64,000 bases of DNA, taken from positions 8,258,001 through 8,322,000 of the forward strand of contig NZ_CP010407.1 in assembly GCF_000830005.1 (NCBI RefSeq). Reading direction: 5' to 3'. Source of the DNA: Streptomyces vietnamensis (GTDB lineage Bacteria; Actinomycetota; Actinomycetes; Streptomycetales; Streptomycetaceae). Shown here in pieces: positions 33,854 through 47,439 of this stretch. Below the pieces are notes generated by a model, which ran no database searches, was not told the origin of the DNA, and was given only the letters and a program-made list of their open reading frames with translations. Position 1 is the first letter of the stretch. Every line of letters begins with the position of its first letter. A program made the translations under genes and the position numbers.

Positions 33854-34150
33854 TCAGGCGTCGGCCGCGCAGCGGAATCCGGTGTGGCCGCTGGTGCCGT
33901 CGGGGGTGCCTGCGGTGCGCGCGGCGACGCGGTAGCGGTGGCAGTAGGAGCGGTGGCACATGTGGGACCCGCCGCGCATGACCTTGGCCGTTCCGGTGGC
34001 CGGCCCGCTGGGGTCGACGAGCGGGCGGGCGGTGGCGTGGTCGGTGGTCCACCAGTCGGCGCACCACTCTCCACGTTGCCCGCCATGTTGTGGAGACCGT
34101 GGCCGTTGGGCTCGAAGGCGTCGACGGGGGCGGTACCCCGGTATCCGTCA
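33854..34150 (-). pseudogene. Frameshifted C-terminal fragment of a formylglycine-generating (SUMF1/FGE-sulfatase) protein
   Basis: Read on the minus strand, one frame gives 'GYRGTAPVDAFEPNGHGL' then 'HNMAGNV'. After a one-base deletion near 34070 the neighbouring frame continues with 'WCADWWTTDHATARPLVDP', 'GPATGTAKVMRGGSH', 'CHRSYCHRYRVAAR' and 'TGFRCAADA' to a stop at 33854. That is the unmistakable end of an SUMF1/FGE-sulfatase domain (NVWEWCADW, RGGS, GFRC). The N-terminal two thirds are missing, so this is a decayed fragment, not a sequencing slip alone. Confidence 0.8.
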
Positions 34151-37753: not shown

Positions 37754-38041
37754 TCATCTCTTCGGCCCGGTCCCGATGTGCCGGTCGACCGTCCGGGTGA
37801 AGAAGGCGCCGAAGCGTTCGGCCACGGCACCGGGCCGTTCCAGGTGGGCCCAGTGACCGGCGCCGGCGATCGCGACGCACTCGGCCGCCGTGAACCTCGG
37901 CGTGACGGCCCCGGCGACCAGTTCCTCGGTGATGAACGGGTCTTCGGCCCCGCGCAGGACCAGGACGGGGCCCGTGTACCGGCTGGGCCGAGCGCCGTCG
38001 GGGTGGCCGGTGTTCCAGCAAGTCATGGATGCCCTGCTCAC
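37754..38041 (-). pseudogene. C-terminal remnant of an alpha/beta-hydrolase
   Basis: 95 residues. 'GPVLVLRGAEDPFITEELV' and 'AGAGHWAHLERPGAVAERFGAFF' are the end of the alpha/beta-hydrolase fold, with the acid (Asp in GAEDPF) and the catalytic His (GHWAHLE). The nucleophile elbow and all of the N-terminal two thirds are absent. The first 20 or so residues before 'SRYTGPVLVL' do not look like the family, so a deletion joins unrelated sequence there. Probably inactive. Confidence 0.65.
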
Positions 38042-38083: not shown

Positions 38084-40927
38084 TCAGGGCGAATCGCCTT
38101 CGGACGAGGGCTCGGCGTCCTCGGCCCGCAGGGATTCAAAAGTCGGCCTGTCGGTCTCGACCCGGTAGGACTTGACGAGCGCGCTGATCCATTCGTCGCC
38201 GTGTTCCGGAGCCGTGTCCAGGTACGCGGCGATCTCCTCGCCCCGTTCGCCGCTCGTGAAGGCGTCCCAGCCGGCCGGGAGCGTGGCCTCCCGCCCCACC
38301 GCCACAGAGGTGAAATCCTGGACGTCGTCCTCGGTCAGCGAATCGCCGAGGGTCGTTCCCGCCCAGCCTTCCACCGCGACGCCCAGGAGGCGGGCCGTGT
38401 CCGACACGAGCTCGGGCATCTCCTCGCCGACCTCGGCCGCGAGATCCCGCACGAGCGTGGGGTGGAACACGCGCTCGCGGTGACTCAGCCCGTCCGCCGC
38501 CTCCAGGACGGCCCTGCGCAGAGCGGTGGCCTCCGGGGACCGCCCCGCACCGGAACGGCGGTACGCCCGGAGCCGTGCGACATCGACCCGCAGCAGCGGG
38601 ACGGGAGTGGGCAGTGCTCGTGCCGCCCTGCGTGCCAGGTCCAGGATCCCGAGCGCTTCGGCGAACTGCGCGAGATCCTCGGCGATCCTGGCCCCGAGGA
38701 GAGCTATCTCCACGAATCCGGACGCGTCGCCCGTCCGCAGAACCTGCCTCCGGGCCAGCGCCTCACGATGCCGCGCTTCATCCATCCGTCCGAGCATGGC
38801 CAGGGCCTCGATCTCCAGGACGGCGATCTCGGCGCGTCCCCCTTCCTCCGGCCTGCCCCGGAGCAGCGACAAGGCCTCCGCGGGCTTTCCCGCGTCCAGG
38901 AGGTCGCGGCCTCTGCGCACCGTCTGCCGGGCCCAGACCGTGGAGTCCGCAGCCCCCAGCGTGTCCCGGTCGACCGCGAAGCGGAGCCGGTCGGCGAGGT
39001 ACACGCGGCTGGACGCCGGCAGTTCGTCGAGCGCGCCGTCGAGCAGCACACCCGCCTCCGGCGTCCAGCGTGCGTCGAGGATGCCGGCGTCCTGCCCGAG
39101 GGCCAGCCGGTGGTACAGCTCTTCCGCCCGCGCCTCCACACCGTCGAGGGCGCCGTAGTATTCCACGGCCCGGCGGTGGATGTCGCGCGTGCCCTCGGGG
39201 CTGTCCCGGCGGAGCAGGGGCAGAGTCGTCCGCCGTACATCGGCACGGTGTACGAGGGCCTCCCGTCCGGGCACCGGATCCATCAGCGTCCCCTCCTCCG
39301 CCAAGAGCCGGAAGAGCTGCCGGGCACGGGCGTCGTCCACTTCCCCGAGCCGGCAGGGGACGGCGAGCACCTGCCGGATCAGGTCCGGAGTGATCAGGCG
39401 CAGGGTGAGACCAGGGCTGGCGATCCTTTTGAGGTCCGGGTCGTCGAGGTGGTCCAGGACCCGCCGGTACAGCACGGCCTGGACCTCCTCGTCCTCGAGG
39501 GTGGACAGGATTCGGCGGAGGTCCTCGTCCGCGCGGAGCCCTTCCTCGCCCTCGCGCCGGATCACTTCCGCGGCGAGCCGGAGGCTGAGCGGGTTCTCTC
39601 CTATCCGCTCGGTGACGCTGCGCAGGAACTCCTTGTCCACCCGGATCCCTGCCGCTCCGAGCTGGTGCCGAAGGAACTCCACGGCGAGTGCCGGTTCGAG
39701 CCCGGGAAGGGCGAGCGTGCGGCTGGGCGGCCCCAGCGGGGACCGGCCGGCGAACACGAGGCGAAGCAGGGGGTGGGCGCGCTGGAGCCGGTCCAGGAAG
39801 TCCCACAGCCGCGCCATGGCGTCGGGGCCGTGTCGCTGCGCGCGCTCCATGGTGTCCAGAACCATGATCAGCGGGACGGGCGGACGGCCGGAGGCCGCGT
39901 CGGCCACCAGCCCGAACCGCCGGATGAGCTCGTCCTCGTCGTCACGCAGGTGGTCGGGCAGCGTGCCCGCGTTCCCCTCGTCGATGACCCCGCGTGCGTT
40001 GGCCAGGGTGCGGTGCACCGCTCTCTCCAGCCGGCGTGCGTCGTCCGCGGCCTCCGGAGACAGCAGACCGAGTTGGTGCGCCGCCTCGGCGAGGAGCGTG
40101 AGCGGCAGTTGGGGGAGCAGGTCGGCCCGGTCGAAGGTCAGGTAGCAGAGCGGAAGGCTCCGGTGGTCCACGGTCCACACGTGGTCCAGGAGGAGGCGGG
40201 AGACCAGGGCGGACTTGCCGACGCCTCCGGGGCCGTACACGGCGACCGGTTGGCAGGCGGCCAGGCCGGGGAAGGACGTGCGGTCCTCGACGTACTCGGA
40301 GAGGAGGCCCAACTCCGCCCGTCGGCCCACGAAATGGTCGTCCGCCAGGAGGCGAAGCGGCTGGAGGATCGCGGTCACCTCGATCGCGCGACGGACGGCG
40401 CCGACGTCGGGGAGGTGGACACCCTGCTTCGTCAGTGTCGCGGTGGTGCGGGGCGCCGCCGCGAGCCATTCGGCGAAGCGCAGGGTTCCGGACAGCTGGT
40501 CCATGCTCTGCCCCTCGACGTCGCGGGCGGAACCGCGAAGGTAGGCCTCGGCCATGACGCGTCCGGTGTCGGCCGCTCGGGGGCGGGTGGCCGCCAGGGT
40601 TCCGAGCAACTCGTCGCGGCCGCGGAGCGTCTCGAGAGTGGCGCTCCGAACACGGGGTGCCAGACACCACCGGGTGCCGACCGGTGTGCTCACGCGTTCG
40701 CAGTCCCGCACCACGAAGTCGCGGAGCGCCTGGTCGTACGGCGGCTCTCCGAGCCCGACCAGGTCGGCCGCGTCGAAGAAGCCGAGGAGCACGGCTGCCT
40801 CCCGGTAGACGGTGGAGGATCCGGCGTTCGGCGGCGAGGAAGGGGCAGGGGTGTGCTCGTCCTCGGTACGGCGGGCTCGCAGGCGAGCCCTGACCTCCGC
40901 GGACGTGACGGTCCTGCGCTCGGGCAT
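38084..40927 (-). CDS. STAND-like P-loop NTPase with C-terminal helical repeats
   Basis: 947 residues. Residues 1-195 are a helical, partly disordered region with no recognised domain. At 199-206 'FVGRRAEL' begins an AAA_16/NACHT-type NTPase with Walker A GPGGVGKS (232-239) and Walker B 'LIMVLDTMER' (Asp358), followed by 'LRLVFAGRS' (sensor) and winged-helix-like sequence. The rest (about 530-947) is alpha-helical with TPR-like pairs such as 'AEALSLLRGRPEEGGRAEIAVLEIEALAMLGRMDEARH'. STAND proteins act as ATP-switched receptors in bacterial defence and signalling. It is the last gene of a three-gene minus-strand operon; only one base separates its ATG from the stop of the EAD1-like-AAA gene. 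Target unknown. Confidence 0.82.
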   Translation of the reverse strand: MPERRTVTSAEVRARLRARRTEDEHTPAPSSPPNAGSSTVYREAAVLLGFFDAADLVGLGEPPYDQALRDFVVRDCERVSTPVGTRWCLAPRVRSATLETLRGRDELLGTLAATRPRAADTGRVMAEAYLRGSARDVEGQSMDQLSGTLRFAEWLAAAPRTTATLTKQGVHLPDVGAVRRAIEVTAILQPLRLLADDHFVGRRAELGLLSEYVEDRTSFPGLAACQPVAVYGPGGVGKSALVSRLLLDHVWTVDHRSLPLCYLTFDRADLLPQLPLTLLAEAAHQLGLLSPEAADDARRLERAVHRTLANARGVIDEGNAGTLPDHLRDDEDELIRRFGLVADAASGRPPVPLIMVLDTMERAQRHGPDAMARLWDFLDRLQRAHPLLRLVFAGRSPLGPPSRTLALPGLEPALAVEFLRHQLGAAGIRVDKEFLRSVTERIGENPLSLRLAAEVIRREGEEGLRADEDLRRILSTLEDEEVQAVLYRRVLDHLDDPDLKRIASPGLTLRLITPDLIRQVLAVPCRLGEVDDARARQLFRLLAEEGTLMDPVPGREALVHRADVRRTTLPLLRRDSPEGTRDIHRRAVEYYGALDGVEARAEELYHRLALGQDAGILDARWTPEAGVLLDGALDELPASSRVYLADRLRFAVDRDTLGAADSTVWARQTVRRGRDLLDAGKPAEALSLLRGRPEEGGRAEIAVLEIEALAMLGRMDEARHREALARRQVLRTGDASGFVEIALLGARIAEDLAQFAEALGILDLARRAARALPTPVPLLRVDVARLRAYRRSGAGRSPEATALRRAVLEAADGLSHRERVFHPTLVRDLAAEVGEEMPELVSDTARLLGVAVEGWAGTTLGDSLTEDDVQDFTSVAVGREATLPAGWDAFTSGERGEEIAAYLDTAPEHGDEWISALVKSYRVETDRPTFESLRAEDAEPSSEGDSP

Positions 40928-40928
40928 G

Positions 40929-41987
40929 TCACACGTCCAAGGGGAAGGCCGCGAGGGCGATGTCGGCGGCACTCAGCGACAGCTCGCGCAGCGGCAGGGG
41001 AGTGGGCAGGGGGCCGTTTCCCAGAAGTTCGCCGATCAGTACGGCGATGGCGTCCTGGTCGGGCTCTTCTCCCGCCTCGGCCGCCACCGCGCGGAAGAAG
41101 GCCTCCAGCTGAGGCACCCCGATGGGCTTGATGCGCTCGCGGAGCACGGTGCGGTCGACATCGGGCAGCGTGTCCTCGAAGTCCGCGAGGACCACGCGCA
41201 GCTCCGTGACCTCCGTGCGCCGTTCGGCTGCGACGGCGATGTCCTTGACCATACGCAGGGCCGGGGGAGTGAGCCGGTCCGCGTGCGGGCCGTCGAAGCA
41301 CACCCATACGTCCTCCGGGCTCTCGCGCACGTTCTCGAGGAACCAGCTCAGCAGCATGCGGGCCTGGGTGTCCTCGGTCTCGCCGACCACGGTGGTCCGC
41401 AGCGTCCAGTCGAGCTGATGGGCGAGGTCCCGCATGATGCCGGCCGGGGTGGCCAGGGAACCGGCCCACTTCCGGAAGTCGACATGGCCGGTCGACACGC
41501 CCATCCGGCCGAGCGCGTAGATCACGAACTCCAGGGAGTAGCTCTTTCCGCACCCGGAGTCGCCGGTGAGGACGAGTACGCGGGCATCCCCGGAGGACAG
41601 CTCTCGGAGGTGGCCGCGGAGCTCATCCCGGTCGAAAACGGCCTGGGGGGCCTTCTTCCCGATCAGACTGAGGCCGAACGATTCCCGACCGCTGTCGGCC
41701 CGCTCCGCGAGCAGCGCCTTGATGATCTCCTGGGCCGCGCTCTCGGGGTCGTGGTCCACCGCCTCGACCAAGGCGCGCAGCTTCCCCTGTGCGGCCGCCC
41801 GCCGGAGGATCTCGGGCCAGACGTCCGACATCGGAGCGTTCCAGGAGAAGTCCGCCCGTCGGAGCCCCGCCCTCTCGACGAGGCTGCTGGTCGGAGGCTC
41901 CTTCCAGTACAGGGTGACAAGGACGTCGAGGAGGTCCTCGGCGTCCTTGTGGGCCCGGGGGAAGCGTCGCAGGTCCAAGATGCTCAT
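40929..41987 (-). CDS. EAD1-like domain fused to AAA/P-loop ATPase
   Basis: 352 residues. The N-terminal 80 residues ('AEDLLDVLVTLYWKEPPTSS…AGLRRADFSW…WPEILRRAAAQGKLRALV') fit effector-associated domain 1 (EAD1), a small helical domain proposed from comparative genomics to recruit partners by like-like contact. An ATPase follows with Walker A GDSGCGKS (142-149) and Walker B 'DVWVCFDGPH' (226-235). The neighbouring protease carries the same kind of N-terminal domain, so the two proteins probably assemble through it. Lies 7 bases after the protease gene and 1 base before the STAND gene. Function inferred: regulator or activator of the protease. Confidence 0.78.
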   Translation of the reverse strand: MSILDLRRFPRAHKDAEDLLDVLVTLYWKEPPTSSLVERAGLRRADFSWNAPMSDVWPEILRRAAAQGKLRALVEAVDHDPESAAQEIIKALLAERADSGRESFGLSLIGKKAPQAVFDRDELRGHLRELSSGDARVLVLTGDSGCGKSYSLEFVIYALGRMGVSTGHVDFRKWAGSLATPAGIMRDLAHQLDWTLRTTVVGETEDTQARMLLSWFLENVRESPEDVWVCFDGPHADRLTPPALRMVKDIAVAAERRTEVTELRVVLADFEDTLPDVDRTVLRERIKPIGVPQLEAFFRAVAAEAGEEPDQDAIAVLIGELLGNGPLPTPLPLRELSLSAADIALAAFPLDV

Positions 41988-41994
41988 GGCGCCC

Positions 41995-43029
41995 TCACAG
42001 CACCCCCGCCGCCGTCAGGTCCGCCCGCACCCGCTCGATCCTGATGCCTTGGTTCCGATACTCGCGGGTGTCGCCCTCCCCCTGGCACACCCAGCGGTGG
42101 TGCAGCCCGACCAACCGCCAGCGCTCGTCGAAGACGGGCGACCCGGAAGACCCCGCCTCGGTGTCCGTCCAGTACTGGAGCACTTCGTCGTCCACGTGGC
42201 GTACCAGATTGTGGTGCACACCCACCTTCTTGGCTCCGCCGTTGGGGTGCTGAATGATGTACACCCGGTCCCCGACGGCGACAGGTGCCGCGCCGTCCAG
42301 TGCCACGGTCGGGGTGCCCTCGGGGAGGCCGGGACGGGCCCTGACGACCGCCCAGTCGTGCTCCTCCCCTCCCACGATGGTGTCCGGCAGGCCCATGACG
42401 ACGGTGTGGGCGAGGTGCTGTCCGTGGACGTCCTTCTCGTAACCGAACCAGGCTTCGACCCTCGTGGCCCGGGCGTTCCCGGGCCCCGGGTCGAACAGCA
42501 CGTGGTGGTTCGTGAGGAGCAGATCGTCGCCGATGTGGAAGGCCGTGCCGTGGAATCGTCCGGTCGGGCGGGTGACCAGCAGCCGTGCCACGGCGGGGGC
42601 CAACTCGAGGCCGCGACGCAAGAAGGCCACGTCCAACAGGGAGTGCTCGCGGAAGATCTGCCTCTCCAGGGCGTCCGGGGAGGAGAACTCCTTCCACTCC
42701 CCGGGCCCGGCGGGCGGTTCGGGCGCCTCCACCACAGGCGGACCGTGCGTCAGTTCCCGCAGGCGGACCGCGACGGCCGCATCGGCGCCGGCCTCGATCC
42801 GGGCGAGCAACTGCCGCAGCCGGTTCTGGTTCCGGGCGCTCTCGATGAGGTCGTGCCAGACCAGATGCGCCGGCTGCCCCCAGTTGATCCGCGCTCTGGG
42901 GATGCCCGCCTGCTGGGCGAGGGCGGCGACGGAATCGATCTTCCAGTAGGTCTCGCTCAGGAGATCGCACAGCTCCCGCGCGGCCGGTTCGGTCCAGTCG
43001 AAGGGAAGTCTGTCGAGGAAGTCTGACAT
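41995..43029 (-). CDS. EAD1-like domain fused to trypsin-like serine protease
   Basis: 344 residues, no signal peptide, so the protease is cytoplasmic. The EAD1-like domain spans about 14-80 ('CDLLSETYWKIDSVAALAQQ', 'AGIPRARINW', 'VWHDLIESARNQNRLRQLL'). The trypsin-like domain has the triad His176 ('LLTNHHVLF'), Asp225 ('GGEEHDWAVVR') and Ser295 in 'EAGSSGSPVFDERWRLVGLHH'. A trypsin-fold protease inside the cell must be tightly controlled; the adjacent EAD1-AAA and STAND ATPases and the divergent kinases are plausible controllers. It may cleave a partner to trigger dormancy or death. First gene of the minus-strand operon, 166 bases from the divergent kinase gene. Confidence 0.85.
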   Translation of the reverse strand: MSDFLDRLPFDWTEPAARELCDLLSETYWKIDSVAALAQQAGIPRARINWGQPAHLVWHDLIESARNQNRLRQLLARIEAGADAAVAVRLRELTHGPPVVEAPEPPAGPGEWKEFSSPDALERQIFREHSLLDVAFLRRGLELAPAVARLLVTRPTGRFHGTAFHIGDDLLLTNHHVLFDPGPGNARATRVEAWFGYEKDVHGQHLAHTVVMGLPDTIVGGEEHDWAVVRARPGLPEGTPTVALDGAAPVAVGDRVYIIQHPNGGAKKVGVHHNLVRHVDDEVLQYWTDTEAGSSGSPVFDERWRLVGLHHRWVCQGEGDTREYRNQGIRIERVRADLTAAGVL

Positions 43030-43195
43030 GGGCCCTCCCTCATGCCCAGCCCTCTGTAGGCCCCCCACGCCCACCCGCACGCCGACCCTGACTTCAGTAT
43101 GCGCTGCACGGCGCGTTCGGGCATGCCGTCCCTGCTGCGCGTGCGGTGTTCCCGACGGACCATGGAAGGAGAATCCGGACGATGAGACGACAGCC

Positions 43196-44059
43196 ATGGA
43201 CCTGCACACGGACGTACGGCACCGGAGGATCGGCGGCTGGATCCTGGGACAGGAGCTGGGGCGGGGCGGCATGGGAGTGGTGTATGCCGCCGTGCACGAG
43301 GAGAGCGGCCGGCGCCGGGCCCTGAAGGTGATCCGCTGCGAGGTCGATCCCTCGCCCGAGGAGGCGGCGCGATTCGACCGTGAGATCGAGATCGGCACGG
43401 CGCTGCGCCATCCTCACGTCGTGCGCATGGAAACCTCCGGGCGGCAGGGGCGACTCTGGTACCTGGTCATGGAACGGTGCACGGCCGGCTCCCTGGCGGA
43501 CCTGGTCCGCCGGCAGGGCCCCCTGCCCGCCGCGAGGGCGGTCCCGCTGTTCCTGGGAGCGCTCGACGGCCTCTCGTACGCGCACACCGAGGGCGGTACG
43601 GTGCACCGCGACATCAAACCCCAGAACCTCCTCCTGACGGCCGGTCCGGACGGCGCCGAGGTGGTCAAGATCGCCGACTTCGGACTGGCCAAGGCCTACG
43701 AGACGGCCGGCCTGAGCGGGCTCACCCGGACCGGAGGGTTCGGGGGAACCGCGGCGTTCATACCTCGCTCCCAGCTGGTCGACTTCAAGTACGCCAAGCC
43801 GTACGTCGACGTGTGGGCGGCCGCGGCTTCGCTCTACTACGCGCTCACCGGCCGGACGCCTCGCGACTTTCCGCCCGGTCGCGACCCGTGGCTGACCGTC
43901 GCGCACGCGCCCGTCGTGCCCGTCGCGGAACGGGAGGCGACCGTTCCCGAGCGTCTGGCCGCGGTGGTGGACCACGCACTCGACGACGATCCCGCCCGGG
44001 GCTTCGACACCGCCGACCGGCTCCGCGACGCGCTGCGGGAAGCGCTGCCCGACGCCTGA
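43196..44059 (+). CDS. Soluble Ser/Thr protein kinase with atypical activation segment
   Basis: 287 residues, a lone Hanks-type kinase domain with no membrane segment or PASTA repeats. Glycine loop 'LGRGGMGVVY' (21-30), ATP lysine Lys44 ('RALKVIR'), catalytic Asp139 ('VHRDIKPQN') and Asp161 (DFG) are all present, so it should be active. The usual APE region reads 'GTAAFIPRSQLVDFKYAKPYVDVWA' instead of GTP.YMAPEQ, a divergence likely to alter substrate docking. ATG 43196 has a weak ribosome-binding site. It is divergent from the protease/ATPase operon and 11 bases before the second kinase. Confidence 0.88.
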   Translation: MDLHTDVRHRRIGGWILGQELGRGGMGVVYAAVHEESGRRRALKVIRCEVDPSPEEAARFDREIEIGTALRHPHVVRMETSGRQGRLWYLVMERCTAGSLADLVRRQGPLPAARAVPLFLGALDGLSYAHTEGGTVHRDIKPQNLLLTAGPDGAEVVKIADFGLAKAYETAGLSGLTRTGGFGGTAAFIPRSQLVDFKYAKPYVDVWAAAASLYYALTGRTPRDFPPGRDPWLTVAHAPVVPVAEREATVPERLAAVVDHALDDDPARGFDTADRLRDALREALPDA

Positions 44060-44070
44060 GCGAGGTGGTC

Positions 44071-47000
44071 ATGACCGACGCATGGCAGCCCGGCACCACG
44101 GTGCTCGAGGAGTTCACCGTCGAACGGATCCTGGGATCGGGCGGCTTCGGAAGTGTCGCTCTGCTCCGTACGCTCCGCTCCGGTGAACGGTACGCGGCCA
44201 AACGACTGCACGAGACCGGCCCCTTGCAGCAGGGGCTGCTGATCGGCGAGGCGCGCCGGTGGATGGCGCTGCCCGCGCACCCCTACATCACCGAATGCCG
44301 CTTCACCCGGACCGTGCAGGACCGGCTGGTCGTCTTCAGCGAGTACGTGCCCGGCGGCTCTCTGGCGGACCGCATCCGGTCCGGAGAACTGTACGAAGGA
44401 GGCGGCCCGGAAGCCCTCCGACGGGCTCTCGGTGTTGCGGCACAGGTCGCGTACGGCCTCGACGCCGCCCACTCGGCCGGCCTCCTGCACCTGGACGTCA
44501 AGCCCGGCAACATCCTTTTCGACGGTGAGGGGGCCGCGAAGGTCACCGACTTCGGTCTGGCGGTCGCACAGCGGTCGGCGAACGGAGCCGGCACCGCCCT
44601 CGCGTTCACGGAAGGGGAGAACGACCCATGGCCGACCACCCGTGCACCGGGGCACACACAGGCCTACGCGTCACCCGAACAGGCCGAGGGCCGACCGGTC
44701 GGGCCGGCCGCCGACGTATGGAGCTGGGCCGTGACCCTCCTGGAGATGCTCGTCGGCGAACGGACCTGGCCGTCGGGCGCCGTGGCCGCCCTGGTCCTGG
44801 AATCAGCCCGGCACCAGCGGCTGACCGGCCGCTCGCTCGCGATACCGCCCCCTCTGGCCGAGCTGCTGGCGCGCTGCTTCCACGAAGATCCCGAGGCGAG
44901 GCCGAGTTCCCTGCGACAGTTGGCGGCCGCCCTGCGGGACATCGCCGAGGACGAGACGGGCGGTCCGCTCGCGGTGGAGACACCGCCTCGCGAGCCGACC
45001 GGGGGCTCACGGGAACGGGTGCACGGCCGCCGGTCGACCATCGGCTTCGAACGGGAGGACCCCTGGGAACTCCTCCGGGCTGCCTACGCGGCGGCGGGAA
45101 TCGACGAAGCGGAGGCCACGGGATTCCGGCCGCAGCTCACCGGCGGCCGTAGGACTCAGCTCCTCGAGGAGCTGCATGTGCTGAACGAGGCATGGCGGGT
45201 CTTGTGGCGTCCGACCACCGCTCCGAGTCCGCTGCTGCGGGCCCGATGTGCCGCCTCGATGGCGGAGGTGCAGACAGGTCTCGGTGACTTGAGCGGTGCG
45301 GTCGAGCGCTATCGCGGCTGTGTGCGTCTCCTCGAATCCCTGCCGACGGAGGAGTCCCGGGGCCGGCTGGCGCCGGCACTGAACAGCCTGGCCATTCTCC
45401 TGCGCAGGCAGGGGGCCGTCGAAGAGTCGCTACGGGTCGCGGACCGCGCGATTGCGATGGCGCTGGAGCTGGTCGACGCGTACCCGGGCAGCAACGCCGT
45501 GGGAAACGCGCTGCTGACGAAGGCGAACGCCTTGTTCGGGAAGGACGGCGCGGAGGAGCTGTATGCGGCTGCCGTGGTCGCGATGCGTTCGGCGGGGGAC
45601 GAGGTGGGCGAGGCCAAGGCCCTCGCGAGCCTCGCAGGGTGCCTGGCACGCAACGGCTCGCCGGAACGTGCCGACCGGCTCTGGGACGAGGCCGACCGCC
45701 TGCTGGCGAGACACGCCACTCCCGAGCACCACGACGTACAGGCGGCTCGGGGCGCCATGTGGCTGCAGCGGGCATCGGAGGCCGAACCCGGAAGCGACAT
45801 CGAACTGACGTGCGCGAGGAAGGCGGTGGGTGCGTACGCCCCACTGGTCCGTGATCACGGGGTTCACGAATACTCCGGGGACCTCGGCCGGGCGCTGTTC
45901 CGCATCGGCCGCTGCGAGGAACGGCGGGGGATGCCGCAGAGGGCCCTGGCGGCCTACGGATTGGCGTCCGAGTGCCTGGAGACAGCCGTACTGCGGGATG
46001 GACTCGCCGAGTTCACCGGGCACCTCGCCAGGGCTTACGACCACGAATCGAGGTTCGTGGCAGACCTCCAGGACCCGGAGCGTGCGGTGGGCATCGCCCG
46101 GCGCGCGGTGGACATGTGGCGTCGGGTCACGGACTTGGACGGCCTTCACCGCACGGGGGGCTTCCTGGCCGAGGCGCTGCGCAAGCTCGCCGACGCGCTG
46201 CAGGACGTGGGACGCACCGATGAGGCGGAGGAGGCGGTCGTGGAAGGGATCGCGGTGACCGAGGATCCCGCGTTCCGTCGCGACGGCACGGGGCGTTTGA
46301 TCGCAGCGGCGCTGCACCGTACCCGGGGGGTGGGGCATCGCCGCAGCGGCCGGTTCGACGAGGCCTGGCGTGAATGCGCCACAGCACTCGAGCTGCTGAG
46401 GGCGGAGAAGGGCGTGGAAGCGACGAAGAACCGCATCCTCGTCCTGGAGACGATGTCGGGCATCTGCACGGACTCCGGCCGCTACCGGCAGGCCCTGCTG
46501 ATCGCTCAGGACGTCATGGCCGAGACCTTCCGTCAGGGCAGGGCCGGATTCCTGCGCGACGCCGATCTCGCCGACGCCATGGACCGGCTCGCCCGTGCCC
46601 GCTTCCACTACGGAATCGCCGACCACGCCGCCGTCGCAGCGCGCGAGGCGCTGAAGGTCTACGACCGGCTCATCACCGAAGGGCGCGTCGACCTGGTTGC
46701 CGCAGCCTCCAGAGCCCGGGTGCTGCTCGGGCAGTGCCTGCTCGCGGACGGTGAACTCGACTCCGCCGCACAAGAGCTGGAGACGGGCCTGAGGGCGTAC
46801 GAGAACATCTCCGACCGGGATCTGGACCGCAGCATGGCGGGGCGCCGCGGTTCCTCCCCGGACGGGTTGCTGCGCACGGCACTGATCGAATCCATCGAGC
46901 TCTGGGTGGCGGAGGTGCGGGAGGCGCTGGGCGTCCGTCCCCAGACGCTGGCGCAGGAGCTCGACCGCCGCTGGGCGGACTACGAGGCGGGCCGGGAGTT

Positions 47001-47439
47001 GTTCCGGCACGGCGCTCCCCGGGAGGCGAGCCTGTTCCTCGAGCGCTCCGCCGGCATGCTCCGTTGGCTGGCCGAGGCGTATCCCGGAGAGCCCGTGGAA
47101 CGGATCCGGGCCGAGACGCTGCTCCTGCTGGCGACCTGCGCGACGAGCTGCGAACGCGCCGGCGTCGCACGGCATGCCTTCCGCCGGGCGGCGGAGTGCC
47201 TGAGGCGCCTCACGACGGACCTCGGACGGCCCGAGTACGCCGACCGCTGGTTCGAGGCCTGCATCGCCCGGCTGAGCTGGCTCGTGTGGGACGGCGACGA
47301 ACCCGAGGCACAGACCGTGCTCAAGGACCTGCGCCGAGAGGTGGGCGTCTTCCGCCCGGCGCAGCGGGAGACATGGGACCGGCGTGCCGAGGAGTCCATG
47401 GCCCAGGGGCGGAAACTACGTGAGCGCGCCCGCGCGTAG
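44071..47439 (+). CDS. Large Ser/Thr protein kinase with long TPR-like C-terminus
   Basis: 1122 residues. Kinase domain about 14-295: glycine loop 'LGSGGFGSVA', Lys44 ('YAAKR'), 'LLHLDVKPGNILF' (HLD in place of HRD, Asp142 kept), DFG Asp160, and 'QAYASPEQAEGRPVGPAADVWSWAVTLLEMLVGE'. A linker follows, then about 750 residues of alpha-helical repeats ('GDLSGAVERYRGCVRLLESL', 'GAVEESLRVADRAIAMALEL', 'GRTDEAEEAVVEGI', 'GRYRQALLIAQDVMAETF'), consistent with TPRs forming a large superhelix for binding partners. No membrane segment. Loss of the HRD arginine usually means activation without activation-loop phosphorylation. It probably senses or scaffolds other members of this cluster. Confidence 0.85.
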   Translation: MTDAWQPGTTVLEEFTVERILGSGGFGSVALLRTLRSGERYAAKRLHETGPLQQGLLIGEARRWMALPAHPYITECRFTRTVQDRLVVFSEYVPGGSLADRIRSGELYEGGGPEALRRALGVAAQVAYGLDAAHSAGLLHLDVKPGNILFDGEGAAKVTDFGLAVAQRSANGAGTALAFTEGENDPWPTTRAPGHTQAYASPEQAEGRPVGPAADVWSWAVTLLEMLVGERTWPSGAVAALVLESARHQRLTGRSLAIPPPLAELLARCFHEDPEARPSSLRQLAAALRDIAEDETGGPLAVETPPREPTGGSRERVHGRRSTIGFEREDPWELLRAAYAAAGIDEAEATGFRPQLTGGRRTQLLEELHVLNEAWRVLWRPTTAPSPLLRARCAASMAEVQTGLGDLSGAVERYRGCVRLLESLPTEESRGRLAPALNSLAILLRRQGAVEESLRVADRAIAMALELVDAYPGSNAVGNALLTKANALFGKDGAEELYAAAVVAMRSAGDEVGEAKALASLAGCLARNGSPERADRLWDEADRLLARHATPEHHDVQAARGAMWLQRASEAEPGSDIELTCARKAVGAYAPLVRDHGVHEYSGDLGRALFRIGRCEERRGMPQRALAAYGLASECLETAVLRDGLAEFTGHLARAYDHESRFVADLQDPERAVGIARRAVDMWRRVTDLDGLHRTGGFLAEALRKLADALQDVGRTDEAEEAVVEGIAVTEDPAFRRDGTGRLIAAALHRTRGVGHRRSGRFDEAWRECATALELLRAEKGVEATKNRILVLETMSGICTDSGRYRQALLIAQDVMAETFRQGRAGFLRDADLADAMDRLARARFHYGIADHAAVAAREALKVYDRLITEGRVDLVAAASRARVLLGQCLLADGELDSAAQELETGLRAYENISDRDLDRSMAGRRGSSPDGLLRTALIESIELWVAEVREALGVRPQTLAQELDRRWADYEAGRELFRHGAPREASLFLERSAGMLRWLAEAYPGEPVERIRAETLLLLATCATSCERAGVARHAFRRAAECLRRLTTDLGRPEYADRWFEACIARLSWLVWDGDEPEAQTVLKDLRREVGVFRPAQRETWDRRAEESMAQGRKLRERARA

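What the first reader, a model, noticed from the sequence alone, without database searches (positions are those of the whole stretch)
38084..47439. Five-gene NTPase-protease-kinase cluster that looks like an uncharacterised biological-conflict system
A minus-strand operon (EAD1-like-trypsin protease, EAD1-like-AAA ATPase, STAND-like NTPase) is divergent from two soluble Ser/Thr kinases, one with about 750 residues of helical repeats. The region is flanked by gene remnants (33854-34150 and 37754-38041), as in variable islands. Known families: STAND NTPases, EADs and caspase/trypsin-type effectors are combined in bacterial defence and programmed-death systems. This particular set with two kinases is, to my knowledge, not described. 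The model that STAND and kinases sense, AAA and EAD recruit, and the cytoplasmic protease executes is inference.
Basis: partly seen in the sequence, partly recalled or inferred. Interest (0 to 1): 0.87.

Follow-up and report, generated by a model that had tools for sequence, protein, structure and literature searches.

The report
CARD-NLR-like immune cluster with kinases
A Streptomyces gene cluster that looks like a bacterial version of animal inflammasome-type immunity (an NLR-like sensor, a CARD-like adaptor and a protease) carries two protein kinases in the place where its relatives carry membrane-lipid- or DNA-attacking enzymes.

Summary
The five genes are real, at the stated coordinates, and form one unit. 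Against S. wedmorensis (L003) one collinear 9.4-kb DNA match (79%) covers 38097-47439 and stops at the outer ends of the two outermost genes; L048 has the same five genes at 46-71% identity; flanks differ. The unit has two modules. The minus-strand trio (EAD1-trypsin, EAD1-ATPase, STAND) is related, domain by domain, to proteobacterial operons with the architecture published for CARD-NLR/LypABC immune systems. The predicted EAD1 fold matches CARD and death domains best. LypA's CARD-protease-ATPase chain is here split into two EAD1 proteins. The kinase pair is a second, separable module. Of nine EAD1-trio loci read, three carry the kinases and no matching hydrolase; six carry DUF900 and/or lipase-like hydrolases and no kinases. 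Best reading: a CARD-NLR-like abortive-infection system whose output slot is taken by two Ser/Thr kinases. The core is fairly secure; the kinases' role is inferred. New variant of a known kind.

The parts
38084..40927 (-). STAND/NLR-like ATPase, about 947 aa: N-terminal domain, NTPase with Walker A GPGGVGKS and Walker B MVLD, C-terminal helical/TPR-like region (LypB-like)
   Evidence: Pfam AAA_16; A3 profile against LypB-like profile E 1.1e-66, query columns 36-648; start ATG 40927 inferred from its place just after the upstream stop, longest frame starts 40972
40929..41987 (-). EAD1-AAA ATPase, 352 aa, canonical P-loop GDSGCGKS (corresponds to the ATPase half of LypA)
   Evidence: Pfam EAD1 and AAA_22; A1 HMM matches residues 368-600 of a trypsin-ATPase protein, E 3e-11; hhalign 95.7%
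41995..43029 (-). EAD1-trypsin protease, 344 aa, triad H175/H176, D225, S295 (corresponds to CARD-protease half of LypA)
43030..43195 (.). 166-bp divergent intergenic region, presumed promoters of both arms
   Evidence: lies inside the continuous DNA match to L003
43196..44059 (+). KIN1, soluble Ser/Thr kinase, 287 aa; K, HRD and DFG intact; APE-region motif is FIPRSQ/FMPRxQ
   Evidence: Pfam Pkinase; alignment of 6
44071..47439 (+). KIN2, Ser/Thr kinase (HLD-type catalytic loop) with about 780-residue TPR/helical C-terminus, 1122 aa
   Evidence: Pfam Pkinase and TPR_12; alignment of 8

Best explanation
A mobile, five-gene CARD-NLR-like immune module. Core (supported by homology): the STAND protein is the NLR-like sensor. 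On activation it oligomerises and, through its N-terminal domain, engages CARD-like EAD1 domains that recruit the trypsin-like protease and a partner ATPase; this is the LypA-LypB arrangement, with LypA split in two and held together by EAD1. Output (inferred): activated protease, or the assembled complex, switches on the divergently encoded kinase pair KIN1/KIN2, which replaces the hydrolase, second protease/endonuclease or gasdermin found in relatives and shuts the cell down by phosphorylating host or invader proteins. Shown here: homology of every core part, catalytic motifs, co-inheritance of all five genes, complementary distribution of kinases and hydrolases. Inferred: the trigger, EAD1-STAND binding, protease substrates, kinase targets, and that the result is abortive infection.
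Confidence: 0.52

Rival explanations
1. The kinases are upstream regulators: KIN1/KIN2 (TPR domain as sensor) phosphorylate the STAND or EAD1 proteins and either license or restrain the protease; the true death effector is the protease itself.
For: Divergent transcription from a separate promoter region; KIN1-KIN2 occur as a pair elsewhere without the trio; KIN2 has a long TPR region that could bind a ligand; LypC's nuclease activity is dispensable in LypABC.
Against: The kinase pair is absent from 6 of 9 EAD1-trio loci and from 21 of 21 EAD5-type loci read (one, L107, has a kinase-like hit, 33% over 155 residues, about 2.5 kb from the nearest system gene), so the core does not need it; the EAD1 loci that lack it have hydrolases instead, which look like outputs, not regulators.
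Confidence: 0.25
2. Two independent defence or signalling modules sit side by side: a complete CARD-NLR-like protease system and a self-sufficient kinase pair.
For: Each half occurs alone: trio without kinases in 6 of 9 loci, kinase pair without trio in 5 loci, three of them (L076-L078) in one shared chromosomal neighbourhood.
Against: Against L003 the two halves share exact outer boundaries and a 166-bp divergent region; in L003 and L048 the five genes stay together down to 46% protein identity with congruent trees while the flanking genes differ; hydrolase matches are missing exactly where kinases are present.
Confidence: 0.15
3. Not defence but a developmental or lysis control switch (as LypABC was co-opted for gene-transfer-agent release), for example timed hyphal death. 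Overlaps with the readings above.
For: LypABC serves GTA release in Caulobacter (PMC13236601, abstract); Streptomyces hyphae undergo programmed death (recalled).
Against: Sporadic distribution (trio in 7 of 392 genomes of the genus) and differing flanks do not suit a conserved developmental role.
Confidence: 0.1

Closest known systems
CARD-NLR systems / LypABC (Caulobacter, PMC13236601; Lysobacter system of Wein et al. 2025, cited there, not held)
   Same: NLR-like STAND with N-terminal domain, Gx4GKS and MVLD motifs and TPR region; CARD-like domain on a trypsin-like protease; a second ATPase domain tied to the protease; swappable third component.
   Different: LypA is split into EAD1-protease and EAD1-ATPase; the ATPase keeps a canonical Walker A, which LypA lacks; no gasdermin, phospholipase, endonuclease or LypC-like second protease found in the cluster; two Ser/Thr kinases instead, divergently transcribed.
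NucA-trypsin 'System 3' of Kaur et al. 2020 (PMC7159879)
   Same: Trypsin-like peptidase, EAD1 on a trypsin, STAND component.
   Different: No NucA endonuclease and no S8 subtilisin in the five genes; actinobacterial; kinases present.
Streptomyces EAD5-trypsin/STAND operons, such as own-genome paralogue L081
   Same: ATPase, STAND and EAD-linked trypsin together; STAND 31-36% identical.
   Different: EAD5 rather than EAD1, parts often fused in one chain of about 1,800 aa, second trypsin (LypC-like) present in 20 of 21 read, no kinase pair.
AVAST type I (Avs1) and Hachiman nuclease-protease pairs (PMC12799240)
   Same: STAND or helicase sensor acting through a trypsin-like protease that activates an effector by cleavage.
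   Different: MBL-fold pro-nuclease absent here; no EAD/CARD adaptors described in the passages read; protease fused to the core enzyme.

Membership tests
CARD-NLR / LypABC-type system | NLR-like STAND ATPase with N-terminal domain, Walker A/B and TPR-like repeats (LypB) | tested here: met
   (E 1.1e-66 to LypB-like plasmid homologues); motifs Gx4GKS and MVLD as described in PMC13236601. TPR region of the window protein itself has no Pfam hit over cut-off; relatives have weak TPR_12
CARD-NLR / LypABC-type system | Trypsin-like protease with N-terminal CARD-like domain | tested here: met
CARD-NLR / LypABC-type system | ATPase domain on the same chain as the CARD-protease | tested here: not met
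   The homologous ATPase is a separate EAD1 protein; Paracoccus L115 and Caulobacter L118 are also split
CARD-NLR / LypABC-type system | Co-encoded gasdermin, phospholipase or endonuclease effector, or LypC | tested here: not met
   Pfam finds none in the five genes; DUF900, lipase and second-trypsin queries do not match the window at 1e-10
CARD-NLR / LypABC-type system | CARD binds the N-terminal domain of the NLR | not testable with these tools
   No complex prediction available
CARD-NLR / LypABC-type system | Falls in the CARD-NLR clade of DefenseFinder ATPase domains | not tested
NucA-trypsin System 3 (Kaur et al. 2020) | NucA-type endonuclease plus trypsin-like peptidase | tested here: not met
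   Trypsin present, no Endonuclease_NS in the five genes; nuclease present in relatives L116 (record annotation) and L119 (Pfam)
PD-T4-6 kinase defence (PADLOC) | Specific match to PD-T4-6 kinase models | tested here: inconclusive
   KIN1 1.9e-75, but a kinase from another locus, L045, scores 3.6e-54 with the same model, so the label is not specific

The most novel reading that the evidence does not exclude
A bacterial CARD-NLR pathway that signals through Ser/Thr kinases: the NLR-CARD-protease complex activates KIN1, which phosphorylates the TPR-kinase KIN2 (or both act in a cascade) to halt the infected hypha, a bacterial counterpart in logic of animal CARD/death-domain to RIP-type kinase signalling.
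Probability: 0.27. Interest if true: 0.88.

Novelty: new variant of a known kind. Interest (0 to 1): 0.64.

Why it matters
CARD-NLR systems are known with gasdermin, phospholipase or nuclease outputs. A natural variant with kinases would show that the CARD-NLR-protease core is a plug-in platform, and would make testable whether bacteria link CARD-type adaptors to kinase signalling. It also ties three descriptions together: EAD1/EAD5 'effector-associated domains', bacterial CARDs, and the trypsin/NucA/STAND conflict systems.

Tried and rejected
Rejected: PADLOC's PD-T4-6 label for the kinases (a control kinase scores similarly). Rejected: rarity claims from the protein searches; two searches found only 2 and 5 homologues, but scored only 8,000 candidates each and missed L048's AAA (46%). 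Rejected: the idea that EAD1 copies of one operon pair by being most alike. Rejected: the flanking alpha/beta-hydrolase remnant as part of the system; the DNA match to L003 stops before it, and no matching N-terminal half was recognised by eye in the right flank in six frames. Considered: a conserved RR between kinase and TPR parts of KIN2 as protease cut site; it is also present in KIN2 proteins without the trio, so it is not evidence.

Inconclusive: empty-site test. 17 of 61 genomes had the right-flank gene; I fetched one (L098), and there no other window gene of my list matched. The full-length EAD1-trypsin model was poor (pLDDT 57.6); only its protease fold was usable. No model of STAND or ATPase was obtained. 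No match of the trypsin in 50,697 phage records. Plasmids: KIN2 C-terminus only as an 8% fragment. Solved-structure sequence searches of STAND and ATPase gave only designed or TPR helical proteins, GTPases or a chance row; the trypsin matched glutamyl endopeptidases and other serine proteases.

Selection told: EAD1 hit 28 of 392 genomes; regions were fetched from 17 of the 27 other genomes; the 10 not fetched have no STAND match. Of 19 plasmid records with a STAND match I read 8 regions. Of 45 genomes with the STAND family I fetched a STAND region from 28 (the window's own included). EAD5 counts are for 21 fetched loci; two further fetched loci, L113 and L114, are a different type and left out; L109 is only 6.1 kb long. 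Changed on recheck: that genome number (29 to 28), and the confidence of the best explanation (0.57 to 0.52), because LypC's dispensable nuclease and the unread P0005-P0008 loci had been left out. Rival odds overlap and were kept.
Full report
What is there. Catalytic residues are intact: protease H175/H176, D225, S295 invariant in 7 of 7 aligned homologues; kinase K, HxD and DFG present in 6 of 6 KIN1 and 8 of 8 KIN2. An acidic residue six before the catalytic Ser (D289) is also invariant, the place of trypsin's Asp189 (recalled), which would suggest cleavage after Arg/Lys.

One unit. The S. wedmorensis locus L003 has all five genes in the same arrangement. Nucleotide comparison gives a single match, 38097-47439, 79% over 9,418 bp, ending at the outer ends of the STAND and KIN2 genes, with no similarity in the flanks. 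In L048 (genome G299) the five genes are present at 71, 46, 56, 64 and 51% protein identity (trypsin, AAA, STAND, KIN1, KIN2), again with unrelated flanks. STAND and KIN2 trees agree on the order window + close relative, then wedmorensis, then L048; in the STAND tree four homologues whose neighbours I could not read (P0005-P0008) fall beside L048. Protein hits P0091 (AAA) and P0094 (KIN2), both named Streptomyces sp. NPDC097704 and both with contig length 110,101, hint at a fourth case, not read.

Two modules. In 392 genomes of the genus EAD1 occurs in 28, the STAND family in 45, the EAD1 trio in 7 (G000, G099, G112, G131, G254, G299, G361), and the KIN2 C-terminus in 8, two of these being short matches. 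(294 genomes) added one more trio locus (G814, L143). Across the 9 EAD1-trio loci read (window, L003, L048, L041, L042, L143, L043, L044, L047), KIN1+KIN2 stand beside the trio in 3. The other 6 lack them and have a DUF900 alpha/beta-hydrolase next to the trypsin and/or a PGAP1/LCAT-like lipase region at the STAND C-terminus: both in L041, L042 and L143, lipase in L043 and L044, DUF900 in L047. The lipase call is over Pfam's cut-off in L042 and L043, just below it in L044, and by similarity to L042 in L041 (where it lies in two frames) and L143. L044's contig ends next to its trypsin, so a gene beyond it cannot be seen. None of the 3 kinase loci matches the hydrolase queries at 1e-10. Conversely KIN1+KIN2 occur as a pair without trio genes within the fetched 20 kb in 5 of 5 further loci (L076-L080), three in one shared neighbourhood.

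What the trio is. Searching plasmids with the STAND found 19 records, Pseudomonadota and one Bacteroidota. In 8 of 8 regions read, a trypsin-like or serine protease gene lies one or two genes upstream in the same direction. Paracoccus L115 has EAD1-trypsin, EAD1-ATPase and STAND in the same order as the window. Polaromonas L116 has a 601-aa trypsin-ATPase, a STAND and an annotated DNA/RNA non-specific endonuclease; Paraburkholderia L119 has a 603-aa protease, 1031-aa STAND and 662-aa trypsin-endonuclease. The last is the architecture published for LypABC of Caulobacter: LypA CARD-trypsin-ATPase of about 592 aa, LypB NLR-like, LypC trypsin-endonuclease of about 662 aa (PMC13236601, section 9 read). 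Profile comparisons connect every part: STAND to LypB-like E 1.1e-66 including the N-terminal domain; EAD1-trypsin to the LypA-like protease E 4.7e-13; EAD1-AAA to the LypA-like C-terminal ATPase E 1e-8, and by hmmsearch to L116 residues 368-600 at 3e-11 (the same HMM gives only 4e-4 with L119 and 3e-3 with L121).

Rosetta-stone evidence. In other relatives the same STAND shares a chain with EAD1 and trypsin (such as P0057, from a metagenome, and P0074, Thalassiella azotivora) or with lipase domains (precomputed Pfam). A sister group uses EAD5: L081 in the own genome and L083 join ATPase, STAND, EAD5 and trypsin in about 1,800 aa. 20 of 21 EAD5-type loci read carry a second trypsin; its L082 representative is 36% identical over 274 residues to the LypC-like protease of L119. 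None of the 21 carries the kinase pair; one, L107, has an isolated kinase-like hit about 2.5 kb away. So a conserved NLR-CARD-protease core is accompanied by one of several third components: second protease, nuclease, hydrolases or, here, kinases.

Mechanism. Most likely: the STAND senses infection, oligomerises, and clusters the EAD1-protease and EAD1-ATPase; LypB and LypA bind through CARD and N-terminal domain in two-hybrid tests, and their ATP-site and protease residues are needed for lysis. In Hachiman and AVAST trypsin-like partners then cut a pro-nuclease (PMC12799240, abstract and passages). Here the pro-effector would be the kinase pair. That last step is inference. The divergent orientation, the free-living kinase pairs and the dispensable nuclease of LypC argue for caution; a regulatory role is the main rival (0.25) and simple neighbourhood the next (0.15).

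Known or new. I found no report of kinases with a CARD-NLR-type or EAD1-trypsin/STAND core (searches, some with only part of the hits listed; the Nature 2025 CARD paper itself is not held, so variants shown only there would be missed). Kaur et al. 2020 describe the EAD principle, S/T kinases as effectors of other ternary systems, and the NucA-trypsin systems (passages; section 32); their 2021 paper lists S/T kinases among effectors fused to bacterial death-like domains (passages). I therefore file this as a new variant of a known kind, not as a plain member: two features of the published system, ATPase on the protease chain and a gasdermin/phospholipase/endonuclease/LypC component, were tested and not met.

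Noticed in passing
L081:5057-11560 (own genome, G000:C1 about 7097056-7103559): The same genome carries a second, fused system: ATPase-STAND-EAD5-trypsin in one 1,807-aa protein plus a second trypsin, LypABC-like; related loci recur across the genus.
   Followed up: partly
L115:9467-16022 (Paracoccus plasmid pNSM5TCa): Downstream of an EAD1-trypsin/EAD1-ATPase/STAND trio lie three large hypothetical proteins; the one scanned (745 aa) has no Pfam match: candidate unknown effectors.
   Followed up: no
L076-L080: KIN1-KIN2 kinase pair as a free-standing module; in L080 it sits near an open frame of at least 2,414 aa with an SpvB domain near its N-terminus.
   Followed up: partly
L117:4776-5252 (Streptomyces sp. 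NBC_01001 plasmid): A short piece of KIN2 (61% over 62 residues) in a 158-aa hypothetical protein, close to a 1,439-aa ATP-binding protein.
   Followed up: no
G254:C1:531868-533128 and 11007702-11008962: An EAD1-trypsin/ATPase pair is present at mirror positions near both ends of one chromosome contig, presumably in terminal inverted repeats.
   Followed up: no
L041 and L042 ATPase proteins: In two hydrolase-type loci the ATPase P-loop lysine is replaced by arginine (GQRRSGRT, GRRRSGRT), while the three kinase-type loci keep a GK pair; LypA's ATPase is also reported as degenerate.
   Followed up: no
window 37754-38041: C-terminal fragment of an alpha/beta hydrolase 42 bp from the STAND stop, possibly left by the insertion of the unit.
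   Followed up: partly
L003:1248-3333 and L076:4393-6382: A two-gene pair (77-78% identical) lies near the kinases both in the five-gene locus L003 and in the free-standing kinase locus L076, on different sides; not identified.
   Followed up: no
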